Assembly (NCBI GenBank): GCA_902587545.1
Contig: CACILL010000001.1
Span: forward strand, 248,001-312,000
DNA: 64,000 nt
From: an uncultured SAR86 cluster bacterium
GTDB taxonomy: Bacteria; Pseudomonadota; Gammaproteobacteria; Magnimaribacterales; AG-339-G14
Reading direction: 5' to 3'
Numbering within the stretch: position 1 is the stretch's first letter; each line of letters begins with the position of its first letter. A program made the translations under genes and the position numbers. The notes beneath the pieces were generated by a model, which was not told the DNA's origin, did no database searches, and saw nothing but the letters and a program-made list of their open reading frames with translations. Positions 37,074-47,142 of this stretch are shown piece after piece.

Positions 37074-37892
37074 TTATTTCCACTTCGCTGACGGCGGCAT
37101 GGACATCAGGATAGCTTCTGTAGATCCTCCTGTTTTTAAACCAAACAAAGTACCTCTATCCCAAATCAAATTGAATTCTACGTAACGCCCTCTTTTGATA
37201 AGTTGTTGTTCTTTTTCTTCTTCAGTCCAGTCTAAGTCTTTTTTGCTAGATACGGTTTCTTTAATAATATTGAGAGTGGTTAAACCAAGCTCTTTTACAA
37301 AATCAAAATCGTCTTGCCAGTTGCCGGTATTCAAATGATCAAAAAAAATGCCGCCAACTCCTCTGGGTTCATCTCGATGAGCAAGATAGAAATATTCATC
37401 ACAATTTTTTTTAAAATCCGAGTAATAGTTATTGTCTGATTTATCACATGCTTCCTTTAACTTAGCATGAAAAAGTTTAGTTTCTTTATCGTCTGGAATT
37501 GATGGAGTCATATCTGTTCCACCTCCAAACCAATTTTCACCAGTAGCTAAAAATCTAGTATTGAAATGAAAAGCCGGCACCTTGGGTGATTGCATGTGAG
37601 CAACCAAACTGATTCCAGAAGCCCAATAGTCCGCAGATTTTTCTGTCCCTTTGATTTGAGATTTAAAATCATCAGAAAATTCACCCGCAACAGTTGAAAT
37701 ATTTACCCCAACCTTTTCAAATACCTCACCCTTAAGAATGCTTATTTCGCCGCCGCCAGAACCTTTATGATTCCATTTTTTTCTTTCAAACTTTCCGCCA
37801 TCTAATTCTTCAAAGGCAGCGCAAAATTGGTCTCTCAAAGATCTAAACCATTGAGATGCTAAATCTTTTTTTTCATCTAAACTGCTGGTCAT
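37074..37892 (-). CDS. hemF: Oxygen-dependent coproporphyrinogen III oxidase
   Basis: HemF (272 residues) turns coproporphyrinogen III to protoporphyrinogen IX with O2. It has FHFNTRFL, WFGGGTDMTPSIPDD, HRDEPRGVGGIFFDHL and the C-terminal VEFNLIWDRGTLFGLKTGGSTEAILMSMPP, all family signatures. It is slightly short (E. coli is 299) because N-terminal residues are trimmed. Overlaps hemH by four bases. An O2-dependent enzyme fits an aerobe. Confidence 0.95.
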   Translation of the reverse strand: MTSSLDEKKDLASQWFRSLRDQFCAAFEELDGGKFERKKWNHKGSGGGEISILKGEVFEKVGVNISTVAGEFSDDFKSQIKGTEKSADYWASGISLVAHMQSPKVPAFHFNTRFLATGENWFGGGTDMTPSIPDDKETKLFHAKLKEACDKSDNNYYSDFKKNCDEYFYLAHRDEPRGVGGIFFDHLNTGNWQDDFDFVKELGLTTLNIIKETVSSKKDLDWTEEEKEQQLIKRGRYVEFNLIWDRGTLFGLKTGGSTEAILMSMPPSAKWK

Positions 37893-39929: not shown

Positions 39930-40925
39930 TTATAGATTTTTTGCTATCTCTTTTGCGGCATAAGTTAAGATGCAATCCGCACCAGCTCGCTTAAATGAAA
40001 GAAGCGATTCAAATATTACTTCCTCACTTAGCCAGTTTTTTTCAATTGCTGCCTTCAACATAGCGTATTCTCCGCTTACTTGATAAACAAAGGTTGGCAT
40101 TTGAAATTTTTCTTTAACTGCCTTTACCACATCAAGATAAGGCATACCTGGTTTTACCATAACAATATCAGCGCCTTCATTAATATCTAAGGCTACCTCG
40201 TGAAGAGCTTCATCAATGTTTGCAACAGCCATTTGATAAGAGTCTTTTGTTTTATTTCCAAAAAATTTTGCAGATTCTACTGCTTCCTTAAAAGGACCAT
40301 AGAACTTAGAACTGTATTTTGCTGAGTAAGCTAGAATCATAGTATTTTTAAAGCCCTTTTCTTCAAGCGCTTTCCTTATGACTCCAACTCTGCCATCCAT
40401 CATGTCAGATGGAGCAATGATGTCTGTACCTGCTAGAGCTAGCTTCAATGCCTGATCTTCTAGAATTTTGAGCGTCTCATCGTTGTCGACATCGCCATCC
40501 GAATTTATTACCCCATCATGACCATGAGTTGTGTAAGGATCTAAAGCTACATCAGCAATAACTAAAATTTCCGGAAAATTTTGTTTTATTGTTTTTATGA
40601 CGTTATTGAGAAAATTATTTTCATTTACTGCCTCAGAACCTTTCTCGTCTTTCTTGTCTTCATCTATAACAGGAAAAATGGCTACCGCCTTGATACCCAA
40701 ATTAACGAGTTCTTCGATTTCTTTGAGAATACTTTTTTCTGAGTGTCTAAAAATTCCAACTAGAGATTCTATTTTTTCTTTTTCTTTTATGGATTCCTTA
40801 ACAAAAATAGGCTGAATTAAATCATCAATGGATAATTTATTTTCTGCGACAAGATCTCTAATAGATTTATTCGATCGCAATCTTCTCAGCCTAGAAAGAG
40901 GATATTTTCTTTTAAAATTTGCCAT
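39930..40925 (-). CDS. hemB: Delta-aminolevulinic acid dehydratase (porphobilinogen synthase)
   Basis: HemB (331 residues) condenses two ALA into porphobilinogen. The catalytic lysines are in AYSAKYSSKFYGPF and IVMVKPGMPYLD. The metal-site segment reads DVALDPYTTHGHDG, with aspartates where zinc enzymes have cysteines, so this is a magnesium-type, zinc-independent PBGS as in Pseudomonas and many alphaproteobacteria. It begins 22 bases after hemC. Confidence 0.95.
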   Translation of the reverse strand: MANFKRKYPLSRLRRLRSNKSIRDLVAENKLSIDDLIQPIFVKESIKEKEKIESLVGIFRHSEKSILKEIEELVNLGIKAVAIFPVIDEDKKDEKGSEAVNENNFLNNVIKTIKQNFPEILVIADVALDPYTTHGHDGVINSDGDVDNDETLKILEDQALKLALAGTDIIAPSDMMDGRVGVIRKALEEKGFKNTMILAYSAKYSSKFYGPFKEAVESAKFFGNKTKDSYQMAVANIDEALHEVALDINEGADIVMVKPGMPYLDVVKAVKEKFQMPTFVYQVSGEYAMLKAAIEKNWLSEEVIFESLLSFKRAGADCILTYAAKEIAKNL

Positions 40926-40947: not shown

Positions 40948-42447
40948 TTACTTTGCTTCGTTTACTTTTTCCAGCCAGTCTTCATAGTTTAAAAAAGGCT
41001 TTATTTTATTGGGATATAGTTTGTTCAACTCATCAAAAGTTTTGCCCAAGCCACACGAATGTTCTGCATTTTCAATGCTTGGAAATTTTTTCAAAGCTTC
41101 TTTAAATGAACTGATAGACATCCAATAGAAATGAGAATATTTGGATAAGTCTTCTATATCTTTTTCAGGCACTAATTTATAAGTTGCAATAAGTTTTTTA
41201 TCCTTCGATTCTGAATCAATATGAGAGACCAAAAACCAATTTATCCTTTTAAGCAACGAGCTGGGTTTTGATTGATCTTCCCCTAGACTATCTGAAGTAC
41301 CATTTACCCATATTCCTTTCTTAGCTAATTTAAACCAATTCTCTATACCACTTGTCCAAATGACATTTGACAAATCAATTGATATGCCCTTTTCTATTGA
41401 ACTTGCCCTTGAGATATACAAACCAGAATTTTTAATCGCTTCTATTTCGTTTATCCCTTCATCAATTTTTAATCGGGAAAACAATTTAAAATCTTTTTTT
41501 GATTTCGGGTAGTAATCTTCAATTGGATTTTTGAATCTGGATAATTCTTTCTTGAAAGGTGAAAAAAACCTTTCATCAATGAGCTCATTATCTGGCGTTA
41601 AGCCTTTCTCGGTGGTGATTTTTCCAAGAGGATGGTTTTCTATGCTTACGCCTATTTTTTGATGACAGCCTCCACCATATTTTTTGAGTTTTTCTCTCTC
41701 ATCTTCTACATCTTCAAAGACATTTAAATCATTGATTTCATTGAGTAATTCAACTACTTTTTCATTTCCTGATTTTACTTCAATGGCCAATGCTCCTTGG
41801 CCAGGTGCGCAAGGGTTTTGTGAACAAGGAATTACCATCCACAAAAATCCATCTAAGTCCTTTTTGAAGGAATCTAATTCACTTTTAATCTCTTCTACAG
41901 GGGATAAGAGTCGATCCAAAGCAGCTTTGGCTATTACTAAGCCATCAGCATTTGAACCCTTAAGTTTTTGAACTCTGGTCAAAATATTTCCCCTAATATC
42001 TCTAAAGCTCAGAGAGTTCATTTCAAAAGGAAAAGCTTTCTTTAAAAACCTTGATAGATTTTCTTGTCTTCTTGGAGATGAGGTAAAGATTTCTAATTTT
42101 TTCTTTTTTAAGGAACTTTTCTTAAAAATTAAAACATCTCTTGAGTCAGCTCTTTTTATAGTCGCGGCAACTTCTGTTCCCTCTTCAAGATCAACTGGAA
42201 GATCTTTCCAAGAGTGAACGGCAATATCTGCTTTTTCAGTTAATAATTCTTCTCGGATGTCTGAGGTAAAAACTCCCATTTCGGGCATTTTGTGCAGGGG
42301 CGTAGTTAAGTCTATATCGCCAGAAGTGTCTTTTGTCTTAAAAATGATTTTAATTTCAGGAAATTTTTTTTTAATTACCTCTGAGACTTCTATTGCTTGA
42401 AGCTTTGCAAGAGCACTTTTTCTAGAAATGATAGTTAACTTATTCAT
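40948..42447 (-). CDS. hemC: Porphobilinogen deaminase with a long C-terminal extension, possible HemC-HemD fusion
   Basis: Residues about 1-285 are HemC: SRKSALAKLQA, KDTSGDIDLTTPL, VHSWKDLP (normally VHSLKDLP or VHSMKDMP), SSPRRQ, FRDIRGNILTRV, CAPGQGALAIEV and GGGCHQKIGV with the cofactor Cys. About 215 further residues follow, against a normal total near 310. The tail alternates alpha and beta segments and has YISRAS, VIWTSG and FYWMSISSFKEAL, which look like uroporphyrinogen III synthase elements. No separate hemD is in the cluster. Leptospira has a HemC/HemD fusion with similar character. The ATG at 42447 (after AAGGA) is preferred over the TTG at 42456. Confidence 0.88.
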   Translation of the reverse strand: MNKLTIISRKSALAKLQAIEVSEVIKKKFPEIKIIFKTKDTSGDIDLTTPLHKMPEMGVFTSDIREELLTEKADIAVHSWKDLPVDLEEGTEVAATIKRADSRDVLIFKKSSLKKKKLEIFTSSPRRQENLSRFLKKAFPFEMNSLSFRDIRGNILTRVQKLKGSNADGLVIAKAALDRLLSPVEEIKSELDSFKKDLDGFLWMVIPCSQNPCAPGQGALAIEVKSGNEKVVELLNEINDLNVFEDVEDEREKLKKYGGGCHQKIGVSIENHPLGKITTEKGLTPDNELIDERFFSPFKKELSRFKNPIEDYYPKSKKDFKLFSRLKIDEGINEIEAIKNSGLYISRASSIEKGISIDLSNVIWTSGIENWFKLAKKGIWVNGTSDSLGEDQSKPSSLLKRINWFLVSHIDSESKDKKLIATYKLVPEKDIEDLSKYSHFYWMSISSFKEALKKFPSIENAEHSCGLGKTFDELNKLYPNKIKPFLNYEDWLEKVNEAK

Positions 42448-42557: not shown

Positions 42558-43808
42558 ATGAACTACAAAAAATATTTTTCCGATGAGTTGACTTCTTTAA
42601 AGTCGCAAGGTCTTTACAGAAAATTCAGAGAAATAAATCGAGATAAAAAACATTTCCCAAAAGCCACTGAAAGGTTTGAGGGTTCCGAAAGACCTGTTGA
42701 AGTCTGGTGCAGTAACGACTACTTAAATTTGAGCCAACACCCAGATGTTATTAAAAGATCCATTGAAGTTATCGAGGAATTGGGGACTGGTTCTGGCGGC
42801 ACAAGAAATATTTCTGGAACTTCGTCATATCACGCTGACTTGGAAAAAGAGCTTGCCAAGCTGCATAATAAAGAATCCAGTCTGATCTTCCCTTCTGCAT
42901 ATACAGCTAACCAATCGACTCTTTGGACATTATGCAAAAAACTTGAAGGTATCGAAGTATTTTCCGATGAACTCAATCATGCTTCTATGATTCAAGGCAT
43001 TAAAAACGCCAACGTGCCTTGTCATATCTTTCGTCACAATGATGTCGGTCATCTGAAAGAATTGTTAAATACCTCCAATGCCAGTGTGCCCAAACTTATA
43101 GTTTTAGAGTCCCTTTACTCTATGGAAGGCTTAAGATCACCGCTAAAACAAATTGTTTCCTTGGCAAAAGAATTTAACGCTTTAACCTACCTCGATGAAG
43201 TTCACTCTGTTGGTCTTTACGGATCAGAAGGCAGAGGAATTGCAAATGAGCAAGGAGTTAGCGATGAAATTGATATCATAAACGGTACTTTATCCAAAGC
43301 TTTTGGCCAAATGGGTGGCTATGTTGCTGCAAGTTCCGACATTATCGATTTCATACGAAGTTTTGCTCCTGGTTTTATTTTTACTTCTTCTGCAAACCCA
43401 AGTATTGCAGCTGCTTCAATTAAAGCTATCGAAGTAGCAAAAAAATCTGAAAATCTTAGAGAAGACATCAGAAAAAATTCTGATTTAATAAGAACTGGGT
43501 TAAGAAATTTGGAAATTCCTCATCTCGACAATGACAGTCACATCATTCCCATTCATCTTGAAGATCCGAGATTGTGTAAAAACGCTGCCAATCTTCTCAT
43601 CGAAGAGCATGGAATTTATATTCAGCCTGTATTTTACCCAACGGTTCCAAAAGGCGATGAAAGATTTAGAGTTACTATTACGCCTAAGCACCAGGCAGAG
43701 GATATAAAGAGGTTTCTATCTTCATTAAATCAGGTTTGGGATAAATTAAGCTTAAGAAGAGAAAGCTACGGTTCCGCCGAAAAATCTCTAGTTACTAAAA
43801 TTTACTAA
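42558..43808 (+). CDS. hemA: 5-aminolevulinate synthase
   Basis: ALAS (416 residues) makes 5-aminolevulinate from glycine and succinyl-CoA. Signatures are VWCSNDYLNLSQHP, GTGSGGTRNISGTSSYH, FSDELNHASMIQGI, ESLYSMEGLRSPL, TYLDEVHSVGLYG, GTLSKAFGQMGGY with the PLP lysine, IRSFAPGFIFTSS and VQPVFYPTVPKG-like YIQPVFYPTVPKGDERFR. This is the Shemin (C4) route typical of alphaproteobacteria and mitochondria; most gammaproteobacteria use glutamyl-tRNA reductase. It diverges from hemC with a 110-base gap. SD is GGAGATGAA. Confidence 0.96.
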   Translation: MNYKKYFSDELTSLKSQGLYRKFREINRDKKHFPKATERFEGSERPVEVWCSNDYLNLSQHPDVIKRSIEVIEELGTGSGGTRNISGTSSYHADLEKELAKLHNKESSLIFPSAYTANQSTLWTLCKKLEGIEVFSDELNHASMIQGIKNANVPCHIFRHNDVGHLKELLNTSNASVPKLIVLESLYSMEGLRSPLKQIVSLAKEFNALTYLDEVHSVGLYGSEGRGIANEQGVSDEIDIINGTLSKAFGQMGGYVAASSDIIDFIRSFAPGFIFTSSANPSIAAASIKAIEVAKKSENLREDIRKNSDLIRTGLRNLEIPHLDNDSHIIPIHLEDPRLCKNAANLLIEEHGIYIQPVFYPTVPKGDERFRVTITPKHQAEDIKRFLSSLNQVWDKLSLRRESYGSAEKSLVTKIY

Positions 43809-44046: not shown

Positions 44047-46131
44047 TTAAAAGGTTTTTTGGTAAGACAGTCTAACGTTAAGAGGCTCTCCAACAGATGC
44101 CTGATGAGTAGAGTGAGAATGTGGGTAATATGTTTCATCGCTTAAATTCTCAATATTTATCCTTACCGTATCAGAATCAGATGGTGTAATTGTCATTGCC
44201 ATATCAATTCGAGTGAAATCATCTAATCTAGCTTGGTTTTCTTTATTGATGAGCTGATCATCCTGATAGAGAGCACCAAAGCTTAGGGAAAAAAGATCAC
44301 TTGCTCTATGTGTGTACCATAAAGACCAGGTAAGTTCTGGAATTTCTTTTTGTTCTCCAGAACCAGCCGACTTAGTTGCATCTACCGAAGAAAGACCAAA
44401 GTTTATTGAATTTTGATCATTGACCTCTCCGGCAATGCCAATTTCAAACCCGTCAATAGCCATACCAATTACCTCAGATCCGCCAATACCGTCTTCCTGA
44501 CCTTTTACAGTTTCTTGATCAAAGTAAGCAAACGACATTGAAATGCGGTCATCCATGTCATACTTGAAACCAATTTCAGTATTTTCATACACATCTGGGT
44601 CAAAAGTGGCTGCGCTCCATTTTTTGTATTGTTCGCCTGACTTAGGAATAAAGCTTTCGCTGTAACTTAAGTAAAGTGACATGTTTTCCTGCGGTTTGTA
44701 AATAAGACCTAACCTTGGTGAGACGTTTGAGTCGTCTCTTGATGCAGTATTTTTGAGCACTCTGACAGCCGATCTACCGCTTGCTCCTTCAGAATAAGCA
44801 ATAGAAGTATCAACTTGCTCATACCTAGCCCCTAAGACCATAATCCACTGATCAGATAAATCAATGTTTCCATTAAGATACAATGAAGTTACTTCTAGAT
44901 CAGTTGTGGAATGGGTTTTTAAATCACTTGTGTAATCCAAAGCAGTTCTATTTCCATCTTTATCAATTTGGAAATCAGTGGCTGTGGCTAAGAAGTGATT
45001 ATCTATATTCCTTTCTGCAGCATTTTCATTATCAAACCAAGAATTGAAACGAGTGTTTTCATTATCTGTATCTATAATATCTAACCCAACAGTTAAAGTT
45101 CCTCTATCAAAAGCATTTACATTATTAAAGGCAATTGTAGTAGTCTCTCTTAGAGTTACATCGTTGTAACCTTTAAGCTGAACGTTTGTGCCATCGTAAC
45201 TATTAACGTAAAGATTTTGATACATTTTATTGAAATCGTTTGAGGATACTGTCAGATTTATTTTTCCAGAATCGGAGTAATTGTGAACCAGAGTACCAGT
45301 TAGAATACTAGCCTCAGTAGTGTGAACGTTTCCATCAGTACCGTAAGTAATGTGATTTAAGGCGTCAACTGGGCGACTAGCTGAGGTTGATGCACCACCA
45401 ATTATGGAAGTAGGAATTCCTCTATCAATGTATCTTTCATGATCAAGATACTCTAAAGATAGTCCAATTTCAGTTTCAGAGTTTACTGCAAAAGTCATTG
45501 TTGGATTTATACCAAATCTATCACCATCGTATTGATCTCTGTGATTTGCTAGCGAATCAGAATGCACCATCAAACGAAATGCCACTGAGTCATTTACTTC
45601 TATATTCCCATCGACTGCAAAATCGCCTGCACCAAATGAGTCAAATCCCACATTCATATTTGTAAAGGTCTCTCCGATAAGAGCTTTTTTAGAGACTCTA
45701 TTTATAAGACCGCCAGTTCCGCCTCTTCCAAAAAGAAGTGCGTTTGGTCCTTTAAGGACCTCAACTTGCTCTACGTTGTATAGCGATCTGTAGTATTGAA
45801 CATCATCTCTCAAACCATTTTGATAGAAATCTGCAGTTGTTCTAACTCCTCTAATTACAACAGCATCCCTATGTCCTTCACCTTGGGTTGTGTGAATTCC
45901 TGGGACATAACGAACTATATCGCCTAAGGCTCTAAAACCTTGATTCAATATATCTTCATCAGTAACAATCGATACTGCTTGAGGAACATTAATAATTGGC
46001 ACTGGAGGTTTCATGGAGTTTACTTGATCCTTAAAAAGCACATTGCCTTTTACCTCTAGCTCCTCGTCCTGTTGCGCGAACATTGTTGATGCAACAAAAA
46101 CCAAAACAATTATTTTAAAAATATTTTTCAT
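44047..46131 (-). CDS. TonB-dependent ferric-siderophore receptor
   Basis: This 694-residue outer-membrane receptor has a signal peptide ending ASTMFAQ. A plug domain follows (INVPQAVSIVTDEDILNQ, DIVRYVPGI, VVIRGVRT, DVQYYRSLYNVEQVEVLKGPNALLFGRGGTGGLINRVSK) in the style of the catecholate or hydroxamate receptors Fiu and FhuE. The C-terminal barrel ends RLSYQKTF with the terminal Phe needed by the BAM machinery. Two Fur boxes lie in its promoter region. A strong SD (GAAGGAG) precedes it. The siderophore type is not determined. Confidence 0.92.
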   Translation of the reverse strand: MKNIFKIIVLVFVASTMFAQQDEELEVKGNVLFKDQVNSMKPPVPIINVPQAVSIVTDEDILNQGFRALGDIVRYVPGIHTTQGEGHRDAVVIRGVRTTADFYQNGLRDDVQYYRSLYNVEQVEVLKGPNALLFGRGGTGGLINRVSKKALIGETFTNMNVGFDSFGAGDFAVDGNIEVNDSVAFRLMVHSDSLANHRDQYDGDRFGINPTMTFAVNSETEIGLSLEYLDHERYIDRGIPTSIIGGASTSASRPVDALNHITYGTDGNVHTTEASILTGTLVHNYSDSGKINLTVSSNDFNKMYQNLYVNSYDGTNVQLKGYNDVTLRETTTIAFNNVNAFDRGTLTVGLDIIDTDNENTRFNSWFDNENAAERNIDNHFLATATDFQIDKDGNRTALDYTSDLKTHSTTDLEVTSLYLNGNIDLSDQWIMVLGARYEQVDTSIAYSEGASGRSAVRVLKNTASRDDSNVSPRLGLIYKPQENMSLYLSYSESFIPKSGEQYKKWSAATFDPDVYENTEIGFKYDMDDRISMSFAYFDQETVKGQEDGIGGSEVIGMAIDGFEIGIAGEVNDQNSINFGLSSVDATKSAGSGEQKEIPELTWSLWYTHRASDLFSLSFGALYQDDQLINKENQARLDDFTRIDMAMTITPSDSDTVRINIENLSDETYYPHSHSTHQASVGEPLNVRLSYQKTF

Positions 46132-46170
46132 GTGAAGTTTTTCTCCTTCTCTTAAATGAGACTAATTATC

Positions 46171-46191
46171 AAATGATAATGATTATCATTT
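46171..46191. promoter_or_regulatory. Fur box, perfect palindrome, before the siderophore receptor
   Basis: AAATGATAAT-G-ATTATCATTT is a perfect 10-1-10 inverted repeat and contains the Fur core TGATAATnATTATCA. It lies 40 bases before the receptor start and just downstream of a TACAAT -10-like element on the minus strand, so iron-loaded Fur should block transcription. Confidence 0.9.
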
Positions 46192-46205
46192 GTATTGTAA
46201 ATGAA

Positions 46206-46224
46206 AATGAGAAACATTCTCATT
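46206..46224. promoter_or_regulatory. Second Fur box of the siderophore receptor promoter
   Basis: AATGAGAAACATTCTCATT is an inverted repeat matching the 19-base Fur consensus at about 16 positions. It lies on the other side of the TACAAT element from the box at 46171, so the two flank the promoter. Confidence 0.8.
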
Positions 46225-46251
46225 AGGGTATATGTTTATAACTTTAAAATT

Positions 46252-47142
46252 TTAGGCGTAAAAACGTCGCCAAAAAGTAAGTCCTAGCAAAAGAGAAGCC
46301 AACCATGCAAAAAGTTCCACATAGTTTGGATTACTGTTGTAACCAAAAAATCCTTTTAAGAATGAGCCAACGCTTCCACTATCATGCATGATGTGAGTGT
46401 ATTTGCCCTGCCCTTTAATGTTGTAACTATAGAAAAAGGATCGATCATTTTCTTCAAGTTCTTCTTTAGGCTTTAAAATATCCCAAGGTCTTGATATTTC
46501 CTCTTTGCTTTCAAGACCAACTATTTGCAAATTATCGGATTTAGCCAAATAACTTTCAATTTCATGAGTGCCGTAAGCAACCATGCCTGAAGCTAAGAAT
46601 ACCAACAACAAAGTTGTCGCTTGGAAGAAAGATCTAATATTGAATCTTTTTCCTTGAATAACAAAGATATAAACCAGTATCAAAGCAGCGATTATTCCAG
46701 TAAAAAATCCTAAATAAGAAAAGCTCTGAGTCATAGAAAAACTAGCTAAAAGGAATACAACTGTTTCAAAACCCTCTCGAATTACTGAGAAAAAAACCAA
46801 AAAGAAAACTCCCCAAGATGAGCTCAAGGCAATTGCTGATTGCTCTTCTAACTGCTTTCTATCACTTACATGTTTGGATAGCCAAAAAATTACATACCAA
46901 ATAAAGCCCGCGGTTATGAACATAAAAATACCTTCAAATAGAGCTTTAAGAGAGTTGTTTCCTAGAGCCTGTTGGGCTGAAACAATAAAATAAGCGACCA
47001 AAATACTTGCAACAATTGATGTTAAAACAGCAAGCCAAAGCTTTTGAGTTGAAGCGCCATTGCTTGTAAGAAATAAATAAATAATTCCGACAATTAAGGC
47101 AGCTTCCAATGTCTCTCTAAACAAGATAATAAATTCGTTCAT
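46252..47142 (-). CDS. FTR1-family high-affinity iron permease
   Basis: This 296-residue inner-membrane protein has seven hydrophobic segments and the two iron-binding REXXE motifs of FTR1/EfeU: RETLE near residue 9 and REGFE near residue 122. A polar loop (about residues 200-262) precedes the last segment. The usual EfeO and EfeB partners are absent. Its position between two TonB receptors, and a Fur box at 47171-47189 upstream, suggest it moves iron across the inner membrane for this module. Confidence 0.92.
   Translation of the reverse strand: MNEFIILFRETLEAALIVGIIYLFLTSNGASTQKLWLAVLTSIVASILVAYFIVSAQQALGNNSLKALFEGIFMFITAGFIWYVIFWLSKHVSDRKQLEEQSAIALSSSWGVFFLVFFSVIREGFETVVFLLASFSMTQSFSYLGFFTGIIAALILVYIFVIQGKRFNIRSFFQATTLLLVFLASGMVAYGTHEIESYLAKSDNLQIVGLESKEEISRPWDILKPKEELEENDRSFFYSYNIKGQGKYTHIMHDSGSVGSFLKGFFGYNSNPNYVELFAWLASLLLGLTFWRRFYA

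What the first reader, a model, noticed from the sequence alone, without database searches (positions are those of the whole stretch)
40948..41600. HemC with a ~215-residue C-terminal extension that may be HemD
HemC normally ends near residue 310; this one has about 500. The extension shows alpha/beta elements reminiscent of uroporphyrinogen III synthase, and no hemD is present in the otherwise full cluster. The HemC half itself is divergent (VHSWKDLP instead of VHSLKDLP). Leptospira encodes a HemC/HemD fusion, and this could be the same architecture in a different phylum.
Basis: partly seen in the sequence, partly recalled or inferred. Interest (0 to 1): 0.6.

Follow-up and report, generated by a model that had tools for sequence, protein, structure and literature searches.

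The report
Fused two-step heme enzyme in SAR86
A gene in an abundant uncultured ocean bacterium (SAR86) joins two consecutive heme-making enzymes, HemC and HemD, in one protein; it is a relative of an enzyme known from Leptospira, and it explains why these bacteria seem to lack hemD.

Summary
The window belongs to a SAR86-cluster gammaproteobacterium. The ORF (window 40951-42447, minus strand, 499 aa) is an intact HemC followed by a conserved ~175-215-residue tail. No Pfam or NCBIfam model recognises the tail, but its AlphaFold model (pLDDT 88) matches uroporphyrinogen-III synthases as the top ten PDB hits. The whole protein aligns end to end with the Leptospira interrogans HemC/HemD fusion (40.6% identity over 99%, E=1e-88); other HemCs match only residues 1-~300. 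In SAR86, all 37 genomes with the long HemC lack a HEM4-type hemD, and all 14 with a ~300-aa HemC have one beside it. On the HemC tree the fused SAR86 genes group with Leptospira, not with the other SAR86 HemCs, while the neighbouring HemB follows SAR86 ancestry. So a Leptospira-type fusion most likely replaced the native hemC-hemD pair by horizontal transfer; ALA synthase likewise stands in for glutamyl-tRNA reductase in these families. It is a new member of a known kind. A side observation may be more novel: in another gammaproteobacterial family, 25 of 26 fused relatives have lost HemC's cofactor cysteine, and all 25 have a conserved cysteine in the HemD half.

The parts
40951..42447 (-). 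hemC/hemD fusion gene: bifunctional hydroxymethylbilane synthase / uroporphyrinogen-III synthase, 499 aa (stop codon 40948-40950)
41557..42447 (-). HemC half, residues 1-297: S8-R9-S11 start, K81-D82 (catalytic Asp), R126-R127, R152-R158, cofactor cysteine C261 in GGGCHQKIG
40951..41481 (-). HemD-like half, residues 323-499: compact two-domain alpha/beta fold; conserved WTSG (364-367), W-x-N-G-x-S-D-S-L-G-E (380-390), TY (422-423), WMSxSS (442-447), HxCGLGKTF (463-471)
39930..40925 (-). hemB, directly downstream of the fusion; SAR86-native by identity
38902..39975 (-). hemE (uroporphyrinogen decarboxylase), consumer of the fusion's product; its longest ORF overlaps hemB
   Evidence: same order in L140, L141
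37889..38905 (-). hemH (ferrochelatase)
   Evidence: name assigned from sequence
37074..37892 (-). hemF (coproporphyrinogen oxidase)
   Evidence: name assigned from sequence
42558..43808 (+). 5-aminolevulinate synthase (ALAS), divergent from the fusion; over the TIGR01821 cut-off

Best explanation
The gene encodes one bifunctional enzyme. The N-terminal HemC domains use a dipyrromethane cofactor on C261 to polymerise four porphobilinogens into hydroxymethylbilane. The C-terminal compact HemD domain then closes the ring with inversion of ring D to uroporphyrinogen III, the substrate of the HemE encoded two genes downstream. The gene belongs to the Leptospira HemC/HemD family and, in two SAR86 families, replaced an ancestral separate hemC-hemD pair, probably by horizontal transfer, together with a change from glutamyl-tRNA reductase to ALA synthase. 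Shown here: architecture, predicted fold, conservation, complementary gene distribution and tree position. Inferred: the catalytic activities (from Leptospira), the direction of transfer, and any hand-over of hydroxymethylbilane between the two sites.
For: Tail model pLDDT 87.8; its ten best PDB matches are all uroporphyrinogen-III synthases (E 2e-5 to 0.035, prob 0.98-1.00), while the next hit has prob 0.23. Full model pLDDT 90.6, with the first 32 PDB hits PBG deaminases over ~300 residues. Leptospira interrogans 'bifunctional porphobilinogen deaminase/uroporphyrinogen synthase': 40.6% identity over residues 4-496, E=1e-88. Dual activity of the Leptospira protein is reported in the literature (PMC8698207 citing Guegan et al. 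2003). 37/37 long-HemC SAR86 genomes lack HEM4 over the cut-off; 14/14 short-HemC genomes have it. HemC tree: fused rows one clade, 99/96; SAR86 fused with Leptospira and G765, 100/98; all-SAR86 monophyly rejected, p-AU 0.016. HemB identity follows SAR86 kinship, 68/66/62/60/50% (f1/f2/f3/f3/f4), with Leptospira at 41%, whereas the HemC half is 49% identical to Leptospira and only 28-35% to f3/f4 SAR86. ALAS in f1/f2 and GluTR in f3/f4, never both. Tail dN/dS ~0.1.
Against: Sequence-profile comparison of the tail with ordinary HemDs is not significant (hhalign prob 6%), and Foldseek TM-scores are moderate (0.35-0.52), so the HemD assignment of the tail rests on fold, genomic complementarity and the Leptospira relative. 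G000 is 85% complete, although more complete relatives show the same absence. The complementary pattern within SAR86 may be one evolutionary event, so its counts are not independent. No activity was measured.
Confidence: 0.94

Rival explanations
1. The tail has a HemD-like fold but no UroS activity (a degenerate or regulatory domain), and UroS is an unrecognised protein elsewhere in the genome.
For: No significant profile similarity to standard HemD; HemD sequences are very divergent, so a separate one could escape PF02602.
Against: The tail is under purifying selection as strong as that on HemC, keeps a dozen near-invariant residues as far as Leptospira, and the Leptospira homologue is reported to have both activities. 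PF02602 did find the separate HemDs of sister SAR86 families over its cut-off.
Confidence: 0.04
2. The fusion arose independently inside SAR86 by joining its own adjacent hemC and hemD genes, and resembles Leptospira only by convergence.
For: hemC and hemD are neighbours in SAR86 families f3/f4, so fusion would be easy.
Against: 40.6% identity to Leptospira over both halves; the HemC half is nearer to Leptospira than to f3/f4; tree and AU test.
Confidence: 0.02
3. The fused gene is ancestral in SAR86 (or older), and families f3/f4 lost it and regained a standard hemC-hemD pair.
For: The tree is unrooted and direction cannot be read from it; fused genes also occur in another gammaproteobacterial family, f183.
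Against: In the samples drawn, fused genes are rare in the class and phylum (3/369 and 2/399 genomes, SAR86 included), and most relatives of f183 have separate HEM4; gain is the simpler reading but is not proven.
Confidence: 0.2

Closest known systems
Leptospira HemC/HemD fusion (bifunctional porphobilinogen deaminase/uroporphyrinogen synthase, WP_000086821.1; Guegan et al. 2003)
   Same: Full-length collinear homology (40.6% over 99%), HSWKDL and GGGCHQKIGVS motifs, same HemD-half motifs (WTSG, TY, FWMSAS, HACG), hemB directly downstream.
   Different: Different phylum; SAR86 has ALAS next to it where Leptospira has a glutamyl-tRNA-type route (GSA aminomutase in the operon); SAR86 tail is shorter (no C-terminal extension and a shorter linker).
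Standard hydroxymethylbilane synthase HemC (PF01379/TIGR00212)
   Same: Residues 1-~297: fold, catalytic Asp, arginines, cofactor cysteine.
   Different: Extra C-terminal HemD domain; Trp in VHSWKD; about 30% identity only.
Standard uroporphyrinogen-III synthase HemD (PF02602; PDB 3mw8, 4es6, 3d8r, 3p9z)
   Same: Predicted two-domain alpha/beta fold.
   Different: Fused to HemC; compact (~175 residues in the core); below detection by PF02602 and by profile-profile comparison.

Membership tests
HemC (hydroxymethylbilane synthase) | Porphobil_deam domain over the curated cut-off | tested here: met
   PF01379 169.5 bits (cut-off 22.1); TIGR00212 190.7 (cut-off 164)
HemC (hydroxymethylbilane synthase) | Invariant cysteine holding the dipyrromethane cofactor, and catalytic aspartate | tested here: met
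   C261 in GGGCHQKIG; D82 in HSWKDLP; requirement as in PMC3949521
HemD (uroporphyrinogen-III synthase) | PF02602 (HEM4) sequence match | tested here: not met
   No match even at E 10 for the tail; the reported Leptospira enzyme also fails this model, so the model does not cover this branch
HemD (uroporphyrinogen-III synthase) | HemD two-domain fold | tested here: met
   Top ten PDB matches are all UroS; TM 0.35-0.52
HemD (uroporphyrinogen-III synthase) | Converts hydroxymethylbilane to uroporphyrinogen III | not testable with these tools
   Needs an assay or complementation
Leptospira-type HemC/HemD fusion | Full-length collinear homology over both halves | tested here: met
   40.6% identity over residues 4-496, E 1e-88
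Leptospira-type HemC/HemD fusion | Groups with Leptospira on the HemC tree rather than with standard HemC | tested here: met
   100/98 support for the set SAR86 fused + Leptospira + G765
Leptospira-type HemC/HemD fusion | No separate hemD in the genome | tested here: met
   0 of 37 SAR86 genomes with the long form have HEM4 over the cut-off

The most novel reading that the evidence does not exclude
The family of which this protein is a member includes a gammaproteobacterial branch (families f183/f258) in which the otherwise invariant HemC cofactor cysteine has been lost and its role taken by a cysteine in the HemD half (W[VI]EGC), so that the growing bilane would be anchored on, or next to, the domain that cyclises it: a HemC-HemD machine with a new cofactor anchor or none. 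The SAR86 enzyme itself keeps the canonical cysteine and would be the more ordinary stage of such an integrated enzyme.
Probability: 0.2. Interest if true: 0.8.

Novelty: new member of a known kind. Interest (0 to 1): 0.45.

Why it matters
SAR86 is a dominant, uncultured surface-ocean lineage whose genomes would otherwise be scored as missing hemD; the gene is hidden in a fused, Pfam-invisible domain. It shows that the SAR86 families split over two alternative upper tetrapyrrole pathways (ALAS + fused HemCD, versus glutamyl-tRNA reductase + separate HemC and HemD), with the fused gene related to that of Leptospira. The wider family gives a testable case for substrate hand-over of the unstable hydroxymethylbilane and, in the f183 branch, for a change in the otherwise invariant HemC cofactor attachment.

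Tried and rejected
hmmsearch of the tail profile against PDB sequences found nothing relevant. Profile-profile comparison of the tail with an 18-sequence HemD alignment gave prob 6%. Chance read-through or frameshift as the cause of the length was rejected (open frame in 37 genomes, dN/dS ~0.1). Transfer of the whole hemCD-hemB block was rejected because HemB follows SAR86 kinship. A frameshift hiding the cofactor cysteine in G425 was rejected: no reading frame there contains it. No open-access paper in the held library mentions SAR86 with uroporphyrinogen-III synthase, heme biosynthesis or aminolevulinate; the library is incomplete.

Full report
WHAT IS THERE. The window lies in a 1.13-Mb, 85%-complete genome whose relatives in named collections are SAR86 cluster bacteria. 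The ORF at 40948-42447 on the minus strand encodes 499 aa. PF01379 covers residues 4-232 and TIGR00212 hemC covers 4-271, well above the curated cut-offs; nothing in Pfam or NCBIfam matches the remainder. The HemC half keeps the catalytic KD (D82), RR (126-127), RGNI..R (152-158) and the cofactor cysteine in GGGCHQKIG (C261). It stands at the head of a cluster with hemB, hemE, hemH and hemF downstream and a divergent ALA synthase upstream (the same gene order in relatives).

THE TAIL IS A HEMD. With 27 tails from SAR86 relatives as alignment, AlphaFold2 gave a model of mean pLDDT 87.8. Foldseek against the PDB returned uroporphyrinogen-III synthases in all ten top places (Shewanella 3mw8 E=2.2e-5, Thermus, Pseudomonas, Helicobacter; probability 0.98-1.00); the first unrelated hit has probability 0.23. 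The full-length model (pLDDT 90.6, pTM 0.90) matches 32 PBG deaminase chains first, over about 300 residues, which puts the domain boundary near residues 298-322. TM-scores for HemD are only 0.35-0.52; HemD is a hinged two-domain protein, which may explain part of this (inference). By sequence the tail is not detectably HemD: PF02602 misses it and hhalign against 18 standard HemDs is not significant.

IT IS THE LEPTOSPIRA ENZYME. tblastn of the protein against plasmid records hit two Leptospira interrogans replicons over residues 4-496 at 40.6% identity (E=1e-88), annotated 'bifunctional porphobilinogen deaminase/uroporphyrinogen synthase'; other listed hemC genes on plasmids matched only residues 1-~300. 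[quoted passage not shown] 2003 (PMC8698207). I did not read the 2003 paper itself. The Leptospira tail is also invisible to PF02602, so this branch of HemD lies outside the model.

GENOMIC COMPLEMENTARITY. Among 61 SAR86-order genomes, 37 (families f1, f2) have the ~500-aa form and 14 (f3, f4) a ~300-aa HemC. HEM4 over its cut-off occurs in exactly those 14, next to hemC, and in none of the 37. ALA synthase is found in 11 of 12 f1/f2 genomes tested, when two half-matches in G003 (apparently a frameshift) are counted, and over its cut-off in no f3/f4 genome; G052 alone of f1/f2 has no match. Glutamyl-tRNA reductase is found in 12 of 13 f3/f4 genomes and in none of the 12 f1/f2. So SAR86 is split between two versions of the upper pathway.

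ORIGIN. On a tree of 44 HemC domains all fused proteins form one side of a branch (99/96); the SAR86 fused genes group with Leptospira and one genome of another proteobacterial class (G765) at 100/98, while f3/f4 SAR86 HemCs lie with standard ones. Holding all SAR86 HemCs together is rejected (p-AU 0.016). By contrast HemB of f3/f4 is 50-62% identical to the window's HemB, against 41% for Leptospira, so the neighbouring gene is native. The simplest reading is horizontal acquisition of hemCD (with ALAS: G765 has the same order ALAS / hemCD-hemB-hemE-hemH-hemF) and loss of the separate pair. The unrooted tree does not prove the direction.

SPREAD. The tail profile found 3 of 369 genomes of the class and 2 of 399 of the phylum at E<=0.001, SAR86 included, but 32 of 60 genomes around one hit, G425 (families f183 and f258). 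There the gene sits in a cysG-hemA-hemCD-hemB-hemL operon, and G425 has no HEM4; most, but not all, fused f183 genomes lack HEM4.

SIDE OBSERVATION. In f183/f258, 25 of 26 distinct fused proteins lack the HemC cofactor cysteine that the literature calls invariant (PMC3949521), although the catalytic Asp and arginines remain in the sequences aligned; in 21 of 22 fused f183/f258 genomes scanned no other HemC is found. All 25 carry a cysteine in the HemD half at W[VI]EGC; the one that keeps GGGC (L146) has serine there. SAR86 and Leptospira proteins, which keep GGGC, mostly have T or S at this place (one, L027, has C). A relocated or non-covalent cofactor is possible but untested. The association could also reflect one or a few inherited changes.

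MECHANISM. Inferred from family knowledge: the HemC half assembles hydroxymethylbilane on its dipyrromethane cofactor, and the attached HemD half captures and cyclises this unstable product to uroporphyrinogen III before it closes spontaneously to the type I isomer. Whether the fusion improves capture is not shown.

VERDICT. The enzyme is a new member of a known kind; the taxonomic leap and the pathway switch inside SAR86 add moderate interest, and the cysteine-less relatives deserve a separate look.

Noticed in passing
L070:6439-7989 (G425); L129-L136; L098-L117; L145-L165 (families f183, f258): HemC-HemD fusions of another gammaproteobacterial family lack the universal dipyrromethane-cofactor cysteine (25 of 26 sequences) and instead have a conserved cysteine in the HemD half (W[VI]EGC); the one that keeps GGGC (L146) has serine there.
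   Followed up: partly
SAR86 families f1/f2 versus f3/f4 (window 42558-43808 and loci): SAR86 is split between ALA synthase (f1/f2) and glutamyl-tRNA reductase (f3/f4); no genome tested has both.
   Followed up: yes
L128 (G765:C1:709000-724000): A complete 1.2-Mb genome of another proteobacterial class has the same cluster order as SAR86 f1: divergent ALAS, then hemCD-hemB-hemE-hemH-hemF; its HemCD is the longest end branch on the tree.
   Followed up: partly
SAR86 f3/f4 HemCs L082, L088, L092, L093, L095, L096: Several separate SAR86 HemCs have Asn or Ser in place of the arginine of the usual R-G-N motif, and a very divergent cofactor loop.
   Followed up: no
G824:C42:513-2872 (L118, L145): Besides the fusion, this genome has a standard hemC and hemD on another contig; contamination or a second set.
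   Followed up: no
G003:C2:274398-275601: ALA synthase appears split in two frames (frameshift or sequencing error) next to the fusion.
   Followed up: no
window 44047-47142: A TonB-dependent receptor and an FTR1-like iron permease lie next to the heme cluster, suggesting an iron/heme region (assignment from sequence only).
   Followed up: no
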